From the NCBI GenBank assembly GCA_001563325.1, contig LRSK01000037.1, positions 1 through 7,754 of the forward strand: 7,754 nt of DNA, given 5' to 3'. Source of the DNA: Candidatus Thorarchaeota archaeon SMTZ1-83 (GTDB lineage: Archaea > Asgardarchaeota > Thorarchaeia > Thorarchaeales > Thorarchaeaceae). This document shows, in pieces, positions 1,733 through 6,743 of the stretch (positions within the stretch are counted from its first letter, which is position 1; each line of letters starts with the position of its first letter). The translations under genes and the position numbers were made by a program. The notes under the pieces were generated by a model that saw only the letters and a program-made list of their open reading frames with translations, did not search any database and had not been told where the DNA came from.

Positions 1733-3676
1733 TCAGCTCAGATATGTTGGGCAAGGCCAAGCATCGCATTTGAGGCAATTTGTGCATCTTTCAGCATCAA
1801 CTGCAATCCTCGCTTCGTCTAAGTTCAATGCCTCTTGGTCGCATTGAGGAACGCAAGATCCACATGCTTGACAGAAGAGCGCCCGTTTCATTGTGCGTTC
1901 TACTTGCTCTGCTAGAACCTCAATCTCGGATCCTTCTTTCCCCCGAATAGTCATTGAGCCCGAGCTGAATAGTGCGATAGTGCTGTTACCAGAGGTTGTT
2001 CTGAGGGCTCCAAGCTCTTCAGATACTTTCGTCCTTCCGAAAATAGGCATCAGTTTTGACGCTCGAATCAGATCTATACCTTCTGAGAATTGTCCCTCCA
2101 GACTAAAACCTGAATCTGTGCATGGAGAGACTCCCTTTACCAATTCTAGCTCCAAGCGTTCAGAAGGGCCAGGTCGCACACCTTCTATGTCCAATCCGAG
2201 TTCCTCTATCAACTTCAACTGGCCAGGCGGAAGGCTCTTCCATCTCCAGAATCCAAGCTCGGCCCACTCTTTCGAATAGCCGAGCTTTTCAGCCCAATCA
2301 CTAATCTTCTGCTTCCATCTTGTGTAGAGTTTCGGATGGGTTTCGCGAAGGCTCTCAATCTCTGCAAGGGGTGATGCAGGACACAAGTAGCAGCCCATTC
2401 TATGATAGCCCTCATTATACAGTGGGTTGAATGGTTCTTTCTCTTTGAATATGTAGAGCCACACTTCTAGTGCATTCCATTTCTGAATTGGATTTGCAGA
2501 TGTTTGTCCGGGAACCCATGGATTAGAAGATACCCTTGACTCCACAGACCGCTGAAATGACTCGAGCTTCCTCTGACCCATGAAGCTTAGCGTGTCGCTG
2601 CCAATCTCCTCACTGATTGCAATCGCTGCAGGACCAAGCTTTAGAACCTTGCAGCACCATCGGAAATCCCTTGCAGGCGGTCCAAAGGTTTCAATTGACT
2701 CCCAGAACTGCTCGCCAGCCTCCTGTGTAACAATTGATGCCTGATGGCGAACAGCAAATTCATTCAGGTATTCTACGGTTTCGGGAAGCTCAAGACCAGT
2801 GTCCATAAAGAAGAGTGGGGGGCTTTCATTCAGTGCCTTTTCCACAAGCAGATATGTGACTAGGGAGTCCTTGCCCCCGCTGAAACCAACAACTACAGGC
2901 AATTGATGCTTTTCGATAGTCCGTTTTATGAACGAGATTGCCTCGTTTTCAATCACATCGATGTCGTTGCTGTTAGCTTTCACTGCGTCATCCCAAGTGG
3001 CTGTTGTTGGATTGATGGTTGGCGGCCTTGGGTCGTCCACCTCGCGAATCTTGACGGCAAACCCCTTCGACTCATGGGCCATTTCTTCACCACTCATTCT
3101 GGCGATTCCAACACCTATTACTGCTCCATTTGAATCAGCAATCCAGACTTCTTCACCAGCCTCAATGCCTGAATCGCAGCCAGCAATGCCGGGGAGCATC
3201 AGATTTGCGCCTTTCTTCAGGTATTCCAGTACACCATCATAACATGAAACCCACTTCTGCCTGCTATGCTCTCCGATTCGGCGCCCTCCCTCCAAAGAGA
3301 GGAGGAAAGTATAGCCTCGCTGAGGGATGTCGTAACGAAGACGACCAATGATATAGCCATCGACAACGAACTCAAACATCGCGTCCAGCGAAGAAACCTT
3401 GTTGATTATTATGGTCTTATCGGCAGGTAAGACCTTCTGACCTACCGCAGGACCAAATTGCCTGTCTATTGTGGCTATTGCGCAGCGGAGGTGGCCTTCC
3501 ATTGCAGGATAGGGATCGCCCGGTGGTGATATATGCACTTTTCTGGGCTCATGACCACAGACTCCACATCTGGTTTCAGCTGGCCTCGGGACGTTACACT
3601 CATCGCACCAGAATAGCCTGATCTTGGTGAGGAAAGGGGCATGAGACCTTCTGAACTTTCGACGGCTTTGTTTCAT
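1733..3676 (-). CDS. Zinc-ribbon / PUA / PAPS-reductase-like PP-loop / 2x[4Fe-4S] ferredoxin fusion protein
   Basis: A 647-residue multidomain cytoplasmic protein of an archaeal family often labelled phosphoadenosine phosphosulfate reductase; its true substrate is unknown. In order: a zinc ribbon with C24, C27, C37 and C40; a conserved region with PPGDPYPA (51-58); a PUA-like segment about 172-212 (GEEVWIADSNGAVIGVGIA); a PP-loop ATP-pyrophosphatase core with SGGKDS (266-271) and FMDTGLELPETVEYL (290-304); a cysteine pair C341-C342 and C429-x2-C432, the CC..CxxC pattern that holds a [4Fe-4S] cluster in APS reductases; a linker with STIALFSSGSMTIRGKE (565-581); and a di-cluster ferredoxin with C602, C605, C608, C612 and C631, C634, C637, C642. 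The catalytic ECG(L/I)H motif of sulfonucleotide reductases is absent, so sulfate reduction is not supported. PUA plus PP-loop could instead point to RNA or sulfur-transfer chemistry. It lies 40 bp after AOR, likely in the same operon. ATG 3676 has no well-spaced SD. Confidence 0.82.
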   Translation of the reverse strand: MKQSRRKFRRSHAPFLTKIRLFWCDECNVPRPAETRCGVCGHEPRKVHISPPGDPYPAMEGHLRCAIATIDRQFGPAVGQKVLPADKTIIINKVSSLDAMFEFVVDGYIIGRLRYDIPQRGYTFLLSLEGGRRIGEHSRQKWVSCYDGVLEYLKKGANLMLPGIAGCDSGIEAGEEVWIADSNGAVIGVGIARMSGEEMAHESKGFAVKIREVDDPRPPTINPTTATWDDAVKANSNDIDVIENEAISFIKRTIEKHQLPVVVGFSGGKDSLVTYLLVEKALNESPPLFFMDTGLELPETVEYLNEFAVRHQASIVTQEAGEQFWESIETFGPPARDFRWCCKVLKLGPAAIAISEEIGSDTLSFMGQRKLESFQRSVESRVSSNPWVPGQTSANPIQKWNALEVWLYIFKEKEPFNPLYNEGYHRMGCYLCPASPLAEIESLRETHPKLYTRWKQKISDWAEKLGYSKEWAELGFWRWKSLPPGQLKLIEELGLDIEGVRPGPSERLELELVKGVSPCTDSGFSLEGQFSEGIDLIRASKLMPIFGRTKVSEELGALRTTSGNSTIALFSSGSMTIRGKEGSEIEVLAEQVERTMKRALFCQACGSCVPQCDQEALNLDEARIAVDAERCTNCLKCDAWPCPTYLS

Positions 3677-3716: not shown

Positions 3717-5510
3717 CTAGGCATCTATTTTCAGCCTTTTGATACGGTCCTTGGACGGTTGGCCTTCTTTGTCCCAGCCCCTGAGGGAATAGTATTCGGC
3801 AAGCATTTCATTAAGATGAACCACACGGCCCCTGGAGTTGCCTTCTGGAAGGGGACTGAAGAATCGAGGGGGTAATTGGTCATCCTTGGCGGATAAGCCC
3901 TCGCGGTTGTTGAACATACGCTCTAGATTATAGATACGCTCACCAATTTCTAGTATATCTCGACCATTCACAGGGAGGCCAGTTCCCGCGGCAAGGAATT
4001 CTGCATAGTCATCGACTGTCCATGCGAAGTTCGTGAACCGACAGAGAATCATCGAGTCCATCGCAGCGGATAGGTTTTGATAGAGAATTACCAGGTCAGC
4101 TTTCCCTCTCGGATTATCTCGGTCCACTCTGACTGGACTTCCAAGAATCTCGGGACCGATGAGGTAGGATCTTAGGTGACAACCGCCTCTATTGGATGTG
4201 GCATATCCGAGCGCATGACCCTGAGCTCCACGGGGATCATAGGCGGGAATTTCTAGACCCTTCGCATGCATTGCTAATTCTGGAGCGCCATTCTTTTCTG
4301 CGAAGGCTCGACTTCCTTCTCCCAGTTCCGCACCAAGACCGCGAGCATGGCCAATATCCCGGATTAGGTCAATTAGGCCTTCTGTGCTGCCAAACTTCAT
4401 TGATGCATCAATCTTGCCTCTCTGGTAGAGCTCCATGACGCACCCTATGGTGCTGCCCACAGAAATGGTATCAAGTCCAAGCAGGTTACACTCATGATTT
4501 GCTAGAGTGATCCATTCTAGGTCATTTATACCACATTGTGGTCCAAATGCCCAAATAGTCTCATACTCTGGACCACCCACCTCTTGGTCACCTACACGAC
4601 TTATGCGGCCGCACCCAATGGGGCAACCAAAACAGTTGTACCTCCCAACTAGTAGCCGCTCAAGCAGCTTCTCTCCGGAAACGCCCACTGCATCATTGAA
4701 GGTCCCCTCCTGAAAATTGTGGGTGGGCAACATACCGAATTCGTTGGTCACATTGACTAGCACGGATGTACCATAGATAGGAAGTGACTTGTCTGTCACT
4801 GCGTTCTTCTTGATGAGGTGTCTTGCCCGCTTGACTGCCTCGGTCAGTCGATCCTTATCATCTACTCCAACACTGCCAGTACCCTTCACAACAACAGCCT
4901 TGAGGTTCTTTGAACCCATGACTGCACCCACACCACCTCGACCAGCGGCTCTATGCTTGTCTGTCATAATCGCTGCAAGCTTGACCTTATTCTCCCCCCC
5001 AGGGCCAATGCATGCGACCTGTGCCTTGGGATCGGTTTCTCCTAGAAGCATGTCAGTGGTCTCGTATACATCCTTGCCCCAAACCTTGGAGGCGTCACGG
5101 ATTTCGACCTGCTCATCGTTAATCCAGAGATAGACTGGAGTGGGCGAACTCCCTTCGAATATTATTGCAGCATAGCCTGCACGTCGCAGCTGTGCACCGA
5201 TATAGCCTCCAACATTGGAATCAAATATTGTGCCCGTGAGTGGAGATTTGGTGATGACCTCCAGTCTGCCTGCAGTGGGAACAGGCATTGCTGTGAGGGG
5301 TCCAATGGCAAATATCAGAAGGTTCTCAGGAGATAGCGCATCAACTTTAGGGGAAAGAGTATCATAGAGAATCTTTACACCCAGACCCCTACCTCCAAGG
5401 TAGTTCCTATACAGATCATCAGGAATAGGCTCAGTAGTGGTCTTATTCTCCGTCAGTGATACTCGAAGGATTTTAGATTCGATATATGGCAATGGAGTGT
5501 CTGACATCAT
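3717..5510 (-). CDS. aor: Tungsten-containing aldehyde:ferredoxin oxidoreductase
   Basis: Oxidises aldehydes to carboxylic acids and passes two electrons to ferredoxin, using a bis-pterin tungsten (rarely molybdenum) cofactor and one [4Fe-4S] cluster, in the cytoplasm. The 597 residues match the usual length of about 600. Family marks: GGRGLG (39-44); NVGGYIGAQLRRAGY (99-113); AAGRGGVGAVMGSKNLKAV (188-206) for cofactor binding; cluster ligands C293, C296, C300 (CFGCPIGC) and distal C490 (MDSMILCRF); GGPEYET (312-318) and NRGGCHLRSY (440-449), which carry the Glu and His expected near tungsten (probably E315 and H445); CNLLGLDTIS (341-350), a pterin-binding segment. All key cysteines are present. 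Aldehyde specificity (AOR, FOR or GOR-like) cannot be set from sequence. The start is ATGATG; the second ATG (5507) sits 8 bases from GGAGG and may be the one used. It follows deoC by 9 bp, which makes acetaldehyde a plausible substrate by inference. Confidence 0.93.
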   Translation of the reverse strand: MMSDTPLPYIESKILRVSLTENKTTTEPIPDDLYRNYLGGRGLGVKILYDTLSPKVDALSPENLLIFAIGPLTAMPVPTAGRLEVITKSPLTGTIFDSNVGGYIGAQLRRAGYAAIIFEGSSPTPVYLWINDEQVEIRDASKVWGKDVYETTDMLLGETDPKAQVACIGPGGENKVKLAAIMTDKHRAAGRGGVGAVMGSKNLKAVVVKGTGSVGVDDKDRLTEAVKRARHLIKKNAVTDKSLPIYGTSVLVNVTNEFGMLPTHNFQEGTFNDAVGVSGEKLLERLLVGRYNCFGCPIGCGRISRVGDQEVGGPEYETIWAFGPQCGINDLEWITLANHECNLLGLDTISVGSTIGCVMELYQRGKIDASMKFGSTEGLIDLIRDIGHARGLGAELGEGSRAFAEKNGAPELAMHAKGLEIPAYDPRGAQGHALGYATSNRGGCHLRSYLIGPEILGSPVRVDRDNPRGKADLVILYQNLSAAMDSMILCRFTNFAWTVDDYAEFLAAGTGLPVNGRDILEIGERIYNLERMFNNREGLSAKDDQLPPRFFSPLPEGNSRGRVVHLNEMLAEYYSLRGWDKEGQPSKDRIKRLKIDA

Positions 5511-5515
5511 TAATT

Positions 5516-5520
5516 CCTCC
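5516..5520 (-). promoter_or_regulatory. Shine-Dalgarno site of AOR overlapping the deoC stop codon
   Basis: The minus strand reads TAGGAGGAATTAATGATG: the deoC stop TAG (5522-5520) shares its G with the GGAGG that serves AOR. The spacing is 5 bases to the first ATG and 8 to the second. The arrangement is typical of translational coupling, so AOR synthesis should follow DeoC synthesis. Confidence 0.8.
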
Positions 5521-6341
5521 TAGTCATTGAAAACGTTCCCCGATCTGTCAGGACATATAGTACATCGTTCCTTGTACCACACGTAGACCTCCTTGGGCTG
5601 CTTTGCAAGGTTGGCCTGGCGACTGGGACAGTCCCAGCATGGTCTGTCTTCCTGCATCCAGCTATCGCTATACTTAGCCCATCGGAAGTCTTCTACGATA
5701 GCAACACCTGCACTAGTTCCCAGTCTGTCAGCGCCTGCATCGAGCATCTTAATCGCATCTTTGAAGCTCCGAATTCCACCTGCAGCCTTGACTCCCATGT
5801 CTTTGCCAACAGTTTCTCTCATCAATCGCACATCATACGGAGTTGCACCCATTGGACCAAAGCCTGTCGAAGTCTTCACAAAGTCAGCCCCAGCCTCCTT
5901 TGATAGCAGGCAACCTTTACGTTTCTGGTCATCAATCAAGAGGCCTGTTTCGAGAATCACCTTGGTATGGGCGTCACCAGATGCAGACACAACCCCCTCA
6001 ATGTCACTGCGGACGAGCTCATAGTTCTCGTCTCGTAGAGCGCCGACATTCACTACCATGTCTACCTCATGGGCACCTGCACGTACTGCGTCCTTGGTTT
6101 CGAAAGCCTTCACCTCAGATGTGTTGGCTCCGAGAGGAAATCCAATCACGCAACACACCTTCACGTCAGAGTCCTTCAGGAGCTCTGCAGCATAGGCAAC
6201 ATGAACTGGATTGATACAAACAGCTGCAAAATTGTAGGTGAGCGCCTCCTCACAGATCTGCAGAATCTTACTCTGTTTTGTATCGGCTTTTAGGACAGTA
6301 TGGTCAATAGTTTTTGCTAGCGCTTCGACAGTAAGGTCCAT
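5520..6341 (-). CDS. deoC: Deoxyribose-phosphate aldolase with cysteine-rich C-terminal extension
   Basis: Class I aldolase that reversibly cleaves 2-deoxy-D-ribose 5-phosphate to D-glyceraldehyde 3-phosphate and acetaldehyde, in deoxynucleoside catabolism. The TIM-barrel part fills residues 1 to about 218: IDHTVLKAD (12-20), [12 protein letters not shown] (91-102) with catalytic D94, FVKTSTGF (154-161) with the Schiff-base lysine K156, and VKAAGGIR (184-191) with the second active-site lysine K185; DRLGTSAG (205-212) helps bind phosphate. Family members usually end soon after, at about 215-260 residues. Here about 55 residues follow, with C235-x2-C238 and C260-x2-C263 and many aromatic and charged residues, which looks like a small zinc or Fe-S binding tail. 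ATG 6341 has GGTGG seven bases upstream. It is the first gene of the tight deoC-aor-PP-loop cluster, or the second if the PRC-barrel gene 63 bp upstream is cotranscribed. Confidence 0.94.
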
Positions 6342-6404: not shown

Positions 6405-6740
6405 TTAGCGTGCGCCGAGATATGATTTGATGTCATCAAGAACTTCTTTCTGCAAACGAATAACGTCGTGGACCTCAATCTCTTCAGCTTCTTTCACAAC
6501 TGAGTTCAATTGTACTACAGTTCCAACAGTTTCAACCTTGGCAAAATCAACTGGAAACTCCACTTCGGCGCCCTTTACAATCAGTTCTGAGCGAGTTGGG
6601 TTCAATGCGATTCTAATGCTACGAACAATCCCAATCCTGCGAGCTCTACTGTCTAGAACCTCCTTGCCTAACAGCCTGCCGGGCATACTCAGTTCATAAA
6701 GCTCGGCTTCGATACTTGGCATTGACTCACTACTTGTCAT
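6405..6740 (-). CDS. Small PRC-barrel domain protein
   Basis: A soluble 111-residue protein. The segment GKEVLDSRARRIGIVRSI (25-42) is the usual opening of a PRC-barrel: Gly-Lys-x-Val, then a basic turn, then hydrophobic strands; LIVKGAEVEFPVD (53-65) and IEVHDVI (88-94) continue the barrel. The end (95-108) looks like an amphipathic helix. PRC-barrels are small beta domains found in the photosynthetic reaction centre H subunit, in RimM, and in many archaeal stand-alone proteins, some of which (CdpB) act in cell division; nothing here fixes the role. There is no signal peptide or membrane segment. ATG 6740 is preferred, nine bases from AGGAG (6750-6754). A GTG one codon upstream (6743), six bases from the same SD, would add one residue. 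The gene is divergent from the helicase gene and precedes deoC on the same strand. Confidence 0.68.
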   Translation of the reverse strand: MTSSESMPSIEAELYELSMPGRLLGKEVLDSRARRIGIVRSIRIALNPTRSELIVKGAEVEFPVDFAKVETVGTVVQLNSVVKEAEEIEVHDVIRLQKEVLDDIKSYLGAR

Positions 6741-6743
6741 CAC

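What the first reader, a model, noticed from the sequence alone, without database searches (positions are those of the whole stretch)
5520..5687. DeoC carries a cysteine-rich tail (CxxC-x21-CxxC) after the complete aldolase barrel
The barrel and all catalytic residues (D94, K156, K185) are complete by about residue 218. The frame then continues about 55 residues with C235/C238 and C260/C263, the spacing of a zinc-ribbon-like or [4Fe-4S]-like site. Class I DeoC chemistry needs no metal. In front of a ferredoxin-dependent oxidoreductase gene, the tail may dock AOR or a ferredoxin, hold the aldolase next to AOR for acetaldehyde channelling, or sense redox state. The cysteine pattern is seen directly; the role is inference.
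Basis: partly seen in the sequence, partly recalled or inferred. Interest (0 to 1): 0.72.

Follow-up and report, generated by a model that had tools for sequence, protein, structure and literature searches.

The report
Four-cysteine tail couples aldolase to AOR
In some uncultured archaea an ordinary sugar-phosphate aldolase carries an extra four-cysteine tail that is kept almost only where an aldehyde-oxidising enzyme is encoded right behind it, which suggests the tail is a docking piece that hands the toxic product acetaldehyde to the next enzyme.

Summary
In detail: DeoC (window 6341-5520, minus strand) is a complete class I deoxyribose-phosphate aldolase plus a 55-residue tail with C235, C238, C260 and C263. 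In 227 Asgard genomes all 44 strong tail matches sit at the end of DeoC. The tail also occurs in Hadarchaeota and in proteins named Cloacimonetes. It tracks an adjacent aldehyde:ferredoxin oxidoreductase (AOR) gene: of 80 distinct deoC loci, 43 have tail and aor directly downstream, 3 have the tail without aor, 30 have neither, none has aor without the tail, 4 had too little flank. Tail-less deoC falls among tailed ones at least three times, without adjacent aor, though the deep node is weak. The three tails without aor keep all cysteines but lack R241 and the acidic end that the 35 other aligned tails keep. Best explanation: a metal-held helical adaptor that docks DeoC onto its partner AOR for acetaldehyde transfer. 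Binding, metal and channelling are inferred; a zinc-ribbon fold is not supported. The searches in the held library found no description.

The parts
5523..6341 (-). deoC, 273 aa, class I deoxyribose-phosphate aldolase with C-terminal four-cysteine tail (stop codon 5520-5522)
5523..5687 (-). tail, residues 219-273; conserved core from W228 to D273
5628..5639 (-). first CxxC, C235-C238, followed by P239 and R241
5619..5621 (-). R241 codon; R in 35 of 35 aligned four-Cys tails with AOR or of unknown context, lost in 3 of 3 without linked AOR
5553..5564 (-). second CxxC, C260-C263, at the end of helix 250-261
5523..5537 (-). C-terminal NxFx(D/E), residues 269-273; N269, F271 and acidic 273 are candidate contact residues (inference)
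3717..5510 (-). aor, 597 aa, directly downstream of deoC (9 bases between stop and start, GAGG within the gap); AFOR_N and AFOR_C domains; cysteines C293, C296, C300, C490 at the cluster positions (assignment recalled)
1733..3676 (-). PAPS-reductase/PUA-domain gene; follows deoC directly in tail-less relatives that lack aor
6405..6743 (-). 112-aa gene upstream of deoC, no Pfam match; same position in tail-less relatives L131, L132, L136

Best explanation
The C-terminal ~46 residues of this DeoC (W228-D273) are a small helical adaptor held together by four cysteines, most likely around one zinc. Its job is to bind the AOR encoded by the next gene. [quoted passage not shown] AOR bound through the tail takes up the acetaldehyde and oxidises it to acetate, reducing ferredoxin. 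R241 and the NxFx(D/E) terminus are the likely contact residues and the cysteines are the scaffold. Shown: the tail, its conservation, the tight gene pair and the joint presence and absence of tail and aor. Inferred: the metal, direct binding, the contacts, the substrate of AOR and transfer of acetaldehyde.
For: Four cysteines kept in 115-117 of 121 rows. Tail only at the end of DeoC: 44 of 44 strong matches in 227 Asgard genomes. aor immediately downstream in 42 of those 44 genomes and in 3 of 4 Hadarchaeota with the tail. Distinct loci: 43 tail and aor, 3 tail only, 0 aor only, 30 neither; Fisher p 4e-18, not corrected for descent. In the window's family 33 of 43 DeoC genomes are tailed, all 33 with aor behind deoC; the 10 tail-less ones have no match to this AOR at E<=1e-135 among the up to 5 candidates scored per genome, and in the 6 of them searched with every candidate scored the best is a paralogue at about 40% identity. 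Tail-less loci L131, L132, L136 run 112-aa gene - deoC - PAPS-reductase gene without aor. Tail-less f1g8, f12g31 and Hadarchaeota g162 and Cys-less f6 DeoC group with tailed ones. Linked AORs fall in one clade, weakly supported (83/66) and shared with AORs of unknown context. The 3 four-Cys tails without linked AOR lost R241 (3 of 3), the acidic end (3 of 3) and N269/F271 (2 of 3); the other 35 keep them but for one F-to-Y at 271. In family f9 three genomes have the tailed DeoC-aor pair and seven a ~480-aa DeoC; none has both; one of the seven was checked by Pfam and lies in a microcompartment locus.
Against: No structure or assay shows binding. G261 (Hadarchaeota) keeps all four cysteines with no AOR match in the genome at E<=1e-60; G002 and G003 keep them while their AORs fall outside the linked clade. 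AORs of similar kind also occur in genomes without a DeoC match (G340, G374; not placed in the tree). The clade of all tailed DeoC has weak support (80/73), so the number of losses depends on rooting. The tail alone does not fold confidently (mean pLDDT 52.5). AOR context of the Cloacimonetes proteins was not seen.
Confidence: 0.55

Rival explanations
1. The tail is a metal-stabilised structural element of DeoC itself (stability or oligomer contacts) and does not touch AOR; it follows aor only because deoC and aor travel as one inherited or transferred pair.
For: The full-length model gives the tail pLDDT blocks of 77-91 (49 for the last three residues) while the tail alone gets 52.5. Four-Cys tails persist without linked AOR in G261, G002 and G003. 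Deep relationships of the tailed clade are weak.
Against: Tail-less forms among tailed ones repeatedly lack adjacent aor, and R241 and the acidic end are lost in the three tails without linked AOR.
Confidence: 0.22
2. The tail holds a [4Fe-4S] cluster and acts as redox sensor or electron relay next to AOR's own cluster.
For: Proline follows the second cysteine of the first pair in all and of the second pair in most aligned four-Cys tails, as in some cluster motifs (recalled). The 14 linked AORs aligned all have Arg directly after cysteine C490; none of the 32 unlinked rows does.
Against: No similarity to a ferredoxin or cluster domain above noise; one tail matched an LRV FeS model at E 0.066 among other unrelated weak matches. 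The AOR Arg also occurs in G374, whose genome has no DeoC match, so it may reflect descent or substrate. Class I aldolase chemistry moves no electrons (established knowledge).
Confidence: 0.1
3. The tail is a nucleic-acid-binding or regulatory zinc module that tunes expression of the operon.
For: Four-Cys modules often bind nucleic acid (recalled); the deoC-aor junction is tight.
Against: Only noise-level matches to zinc-finger models in single tails; nothing else in the data points to it.
Confidence: 0.04
4. Assembly or frame artefact joined an unrelated 3' sequence to deoC.
For: None found.
Against: Same tail in many independent genomes, including single-contig G185.
Confidence: 0.01

Closest known systems
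Class I deoxyribose-phosphate aldolase DeoC/DERA (TIGR00126; e.g. PDB 6d33, 3ngj, 5dbu)
   Different: In the 50 entries shown the aligned part of the model ends at residue 227 or earlier; none covers the four-Cys tail
Aldehyde:ferredoxin oxidoreductase family (AFOR_N/AFOR_C)
   Same: The partner gene has both domains and four cysteines at the cluster positions
   Different: A sub-clade tied to tailed DeoC, with S481 and R491 in 14 of 14 linked rows
Sugar-phosphate-utilisation (SPU) microcompartments
   Same: Same logic: acetaldehyde made by DeoC is handled in a confined system (PMC8217296, passages read)
   Different: Shell plus an aldehyde dehydrogenase that makes acetyl-CoA instead of a tail and AOR; no shell domain in the window genes scanned
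DeoC A-domain encapsulin operons (family 4)
   Same: Archaeal DeoC with a dedicated neighbour (PMC8346489, passages read)
   Different: Neighbour is a ~100-aa DUF1884 protein downstream, not AOR; no cysteine tail mentioned in the passages read
Prepilin peptidase N-terminal domain (PF06750)
   Same: Weak match for 3 of 17 tails, best E 0.0054; a CxxC-x21-CxxC zinc site is recalled for that family
   Different: Membrane enzyme; match is at noise level and treated as convergence

Membership tests
Class I DeoC (TIGR00126) | Score above curated cut-off over the whole barrel | tested here: met
   288.9 bits against 117.3, residues 8-216
Class I DeoC (TIGR00126) | Catalytic Asp and two Lys | tested here: met
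   D94 in 121 of 121, K156 and K185 in 120 of 121 rows; their catalytic role is recalled
Class I DeoC (TIGR00126) | Aldolase activity on 2-deoxyribose 5-phosphate | not testable with these tools
   Needs purified enzyme
Aldehyde:ferredoxin oxidoreductase | AFOR_N and AFOR_C domains | tested here: met
   283.8 and 464.7 bits
Aldehyde:ferredoxin oxidoreductase | Four [4Fe-4S] cysteines | tested here: met
   C293, C296, C300, C490 in 14 of 14 linked rows; assignment as cluster ligands recalled
Aldehyde:ferredoxin oxidoreductase | Acetaldehyde as substrate | not testable with these tools
   Needs an assay; no NCBIfam equivalog reached its cut-off for this AOR
Zinc ribbon | Beta hairpins carrying the CxxC knuckles | tested here: not met
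   Model has only helices and loops from 210 to 273; AlphaFold models no metal
Zinc ribbon | Bound zinc | not testable with these tools
   Needs metal analysis
Known metal or cluster domain in Pfam or NCBIfam | Significant profile match of the tail | tested here: not met
   No match for the window's tail; best among 17 tails 0.0054, mixed unrelated families
DeoC A-domain encapsulin operon | DUF1884 protein (PF08967) encoded downstream of deoC | tested here: not met
   Downstream gene is AOR; the small upstream gene has no Pfam match up to E 1
SPU microcompartment DeoC | Shell genes in the locus | tested here: not met
   Seven window proteins scanned, no shell domain; the window is only 7.8 kb

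The most novel reading that the evidence does not exclude
The tail is a portable adaptor with its own metal cluster that makes DeoC a permanent subunit of an aldolase-AOR supercomplex, shared by Asgard archaea, Hadarchaeota and Cloacimonadota: a shell-free alternative to the DeoC microcompartment, in which a carbon-carbon lyase feeds acetaldehyde directly to a tungsten enzyme and possibly takes part in its electron exit.
Probability: 0.12. Interest if true: 0.85.

Novelty: new variant of a known kind. Interest (0 to 1): 0.62.

Why it matters
If the tail docks AOR, it is an apparently undescribed protein-protein adaptor with a clear evolutionary signature. It would offer a simple, testable way in which anaerobic archaea keep acetaldehyde from damaging the cell while saving its electrons as reduced ferredoxin, and it would give one AOR sub-clade a likely physiological substrate. 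AOR paralogues are numerous in these genomes (2 to 10 matches at E<=1e-30 in each of the 25 Asgard genomes searched), so a clade defined by its partner is useful.

Tried and rejected
Zinc ribbon: not supported by the model. Tail as a domain of other proteins: no strong match outside DeoC in 227 Asgard genomes. Tail in solved structures: only a 19-residue match at E 7.2. Tail alone as a fold: low confidence, so I did not search with it. Fold searches of the whole model listed mostly DERAs (and designed enzymes built on them, and MJ1099 at the end of the VIA list) for the barrel only; the tail was barely tested there.

G002 and G003 at first looked as if their partner AOR had merely moved; the tree places those AORs in another clade, so I count them against the coupling. 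The AOR residues S481/R491 first looked specific to linked AORs; G374 has them without any DeoC match, so I do not lean on them.

Papers: the searches named in the full report found no description of the tail or of a DeoC-AOR link; the held library lacks most subscription journals.

Full report
WHAT IS THERE. The window comes from an Asgard archaeon close to named Thorarchaeota: the best named relative, L001, is a Thorarchaeota MAG with 92% DeoC identity, and the genome G000 has 2.29 Mb at 74.5% completeness. On the minus strand lie a 112-aa gene (6405-6743), deoC (6341-5520), aor (5510-3717) and a PAPS-reductase/PUA gene (3676-1733). DeoC is a full class I aldolase: TIGR00126 matches residues 8-216 at 288.9 bits. 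It continues to residue 273 with C235, C238, C260 and C263. Such a double CxxC appears in 41 of 200,000 random 55-mers of barrel composition.

THE TAIL IS CONSERVED. The 120 homologues listed (of 7994 scored) were aligned with the query: cysteines kept in 117, 116, 115 and 117 of 121 rows. The consensus is roughly CxxCPSRxAxxxKQPKxVYxWYKxRCxxCPxRxxNxFND. Among 16 Thorarchaeota/Hermodarchaeota sequences the tail (228-273) is as conserved as the barrel (mean identity 0.75 and 0.74); over all 22 AOR-linked sequences aligned it is less so (0.59 and 0.65). Scanning 227 Asgard genomes with the tail profile gave 44 strong matches (E at most 3.2e-13), all at the end of a DeoC found independently; four weaker ones were partial, one of them (G025) on a Cys-less DeoC tail. 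The tail also occurs in 4 of 6 DeoC-bearing genomes among 28 of a second archaeal phylum. I take that phylum as Hadarchaeota because the AOR of G321 is identical to P0166 on a contig of the same length, and its nearest named relatives are Hadarchaeales. A tail search with P0120 listed 54 proteins, all with the DeoC domain, four of them bearing Cloacimonetes, Cloacimonas or Tenebribacter names.

THE TAIL TRACKS AOR. I compared distinct deoC C-termini in fetched loci: 114 loci with deoC gave 80. The 75 loci of named Bacillota (L006-L080) were left out before counting; their matches to the query end at residue 238 or earlier. Of the 80, 43 have the four-Cys tail and aor on the same strand within about 50 bases, 3 have the tail and no aor, 30 have neither, none has aor without the tail, and 4 had too little flank. 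The script scored L169 as Cys-less because its deoC is cut by the contig end; its tail has all four cysteines and I count it with the 43. Of the 23 f6 genomes with DeoC I read 7. Fisher p is 4e-18 but ignores descent. In the window's own family 43 of 47 genomes have DeoC: 33 tailed, all followed by aor, and 10 tail-less, none with a match to this AOR at E<=1e-135, where one search scored up to 5 candidates a genome; six of the ten were also searched with all candidates scored and held only paralogues of about 40% identity. At the tail-less loci L131, L132 and L136 the neighbours, judged by eye from their sequences, are those of the window but aor is missing between deoC and the PAPS-reductase gene; in L139 the PAPS-reductase side agrees. 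Four further genomes of this family had no DeoC match: G190 and G203 keep aor near a contig end, G214 an aor cut short, and G200 no AOR of this kind.

IT IS PROBABLY MORE THAN ONE INHERITED BLOCK. In a tree of DeoC barrels without tails (75 rows, IQ-TREE), tail-less f1g8 and f12g31 are successive sisters of the tailed Thor/Hermod sequences in supported groups (97/91 and 98/81), tail-less Hadarchaeota G357/G407 are sister to the tailed ones (99/96), and the Cys-less f6 tails (KQPKxVYxFY kept, cysteines gone) group with tailed lineages too. None of the loci read for these has adjacent aor. Since the tail is clearly homologous across Thorarchaeota, Hadarchaeota, f9 and the Cloacimonetes type, a single origin implies at least three losses of the tail and one of the cysteines, all without aor. 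The node uniting all tailed DeoC is weak (80/73), and replacement of the 3' part together with aor is an alternative history; in both cases tail and aor move together. The remaining tail-less f1 genera (g2, g10-g12) branch outside the tailed clade and need not be losses.

COUNTER-EXAMPLES AND WHAT THEY TEACH. G261 has a four-Cys tail and no AOR match at E<=1e-60, while its genus-mate G409 has tail and aor. G002 and G003 have tails with AORs that fall outside the linked clade. These three tails keep every cysteine but have T, Y or G in place of R241 and lack the acidic last residue, and two lost N269 and F271. In the 22 AOR-linked, 8 Cloacimonetes-type (4 named, 4 placed by similarity) and 5 unassigned tails aligned, R241 and N269 are invariant, position 273 is always D or E, and F271 has one change to Y. 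I read the cysteines as scaffold and these residues as contact points; that is inference from 3 cases. The tail of G153 (L148) is cut by the contig end and was not classed.

STRUCTURE. AlphaFold2 with 34 sequences gives mean pLDDT 93.3; ten-residue blocks from residue 221 score 84, 84, 90, 91, 77 and, for the last three residues, 49; the tail has only short helices. The tail alone with 6 sequences gives 52.5, so it is perhaps not an autonomous domain without metal or barrel. I had no coordinates and could not measure sulphur distances. PDB fold matches cover the barrel, to residue 227 at most in the rows; the tail profile has no solved relative by sequence and no Pfam or NCBIfam match above noise. 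Zinc is my guess over a cluster because DeoC has no redox need.

THE PARTNER. AORs next to tailed DeoC fall in one clade together with two Nitrososphaeria-type AORs and further rows of unknown context; its node is 83/66, and Bathyarchaeia-type AORs are the next group out. S481 and R491, beside cysteine C490, are in 14 of 14 linked rows; R491 is in none of 32 unlinked rows, S481 in a few; but G374, which has no DeoC match, has both.

HOW IT PROBABLY WORKS. DeoC releases acetaldehyde (established chemistry). Archaea without a shell could limit its escape by holding an acetaldehyde-oxidising AOR on the aldolase. In family f9 the seven genomes with a DeoC frame of 480-490 aa (G042, G044-G047, G049, G051) have no tailed DeoC, and the three with the tailed DeoC (G043, G048, G052) have no such long form; G041 and G050 have frames of other lengths and are not classed; most of these genomes are incomplete. 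The long form sits in a microcompartment locus in G049, by Pfam, and by eye in G042. SPU microcompartments with DeoC are described for 26 bacterial phyla (PMC8217296, passages read). So the two arrangements look like alternative answers to one problem.

LITERATURE. Full-text searches for DeoC or deoxyribose-phosphate aldolase with AOR, Asgard, archaea, zinc finger and C-terminal extension, channelling, acetate and Cloacimonadota, and for Thorarchaeota with AOR, listed no paper on this tail or gene pair as far as titles, abstracts and the passages I opened show. I read passages of PMC8346489, PMC4725937, PMC11291895, PMC8163825 and PMC8217296; all others I saw only as search listings. Catalytic roles of D94, K156 and K185, the cluster-ligand assignment in AOR and zinc-site precedents are recalled.

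VERDICT. A real, conserved, apparently undescribed C-terminal module of DeoC whose fate is tied to a neighbouring AOR. Docking for acetaldehyde transfer is the best explanation at about 0.55; the physical steps remain to be shown.

Noticed in passing
L146:6687-16552 (G049, single-contig Asgard genome); also L147 by eye; DeoC frame also in L145: A microcompartment locus in Asgard genomes: EutN_CcmL genes (two by Pfam, a third by eye), two BMC-domain shell genes, DeoC with a ~260-aa N-terminal extension beginning with a helix like an encapsulation peptide (recalled), RpiB, aldehyde dehydrogenase, PTAC, acetate kinase and an RnfC-like protein. It looks like an SPU microcompartment; the catalogue paper speaks of bacterial phyla and a search of its main text for 'archaea' found nothing.
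   Followed up: partly
L124-L130 (family f6): DeoC with a homologous tail without cysteines (KQPKxVYxFY kept), no AOR adjacent; in L124, L126, L127 and L129 the next genes look like mutS and mutL by eye.
   Followed up: partly
P0095, P0101, P0103, P0106, P0116: Tailed DeoC of unknown host with intact R241 and NxFx(D/E) end; predicted to have a linked AOR.
   Followed up: no
AOR P0203 and P0218: An AOR named Nitrososphaeria and a relative inside the linked clade with S481/R491; could mark a further lineage with the pair.
   Followed up: no
L166 (G214): In this single-contig relative no DeoC was found and only the C-terminal half of the linked aor (query 317-595) is present, next to a stretch translated as X; deletion, masking or assembly fault.
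   Followed up: no
window 1733-3676: PAPS-reductase/PUA protein whose C-terminus looks ferredoxin-like by eye (cysteine-rich), next to aor and kept in place in tail-less relatives.
   Followed up: no
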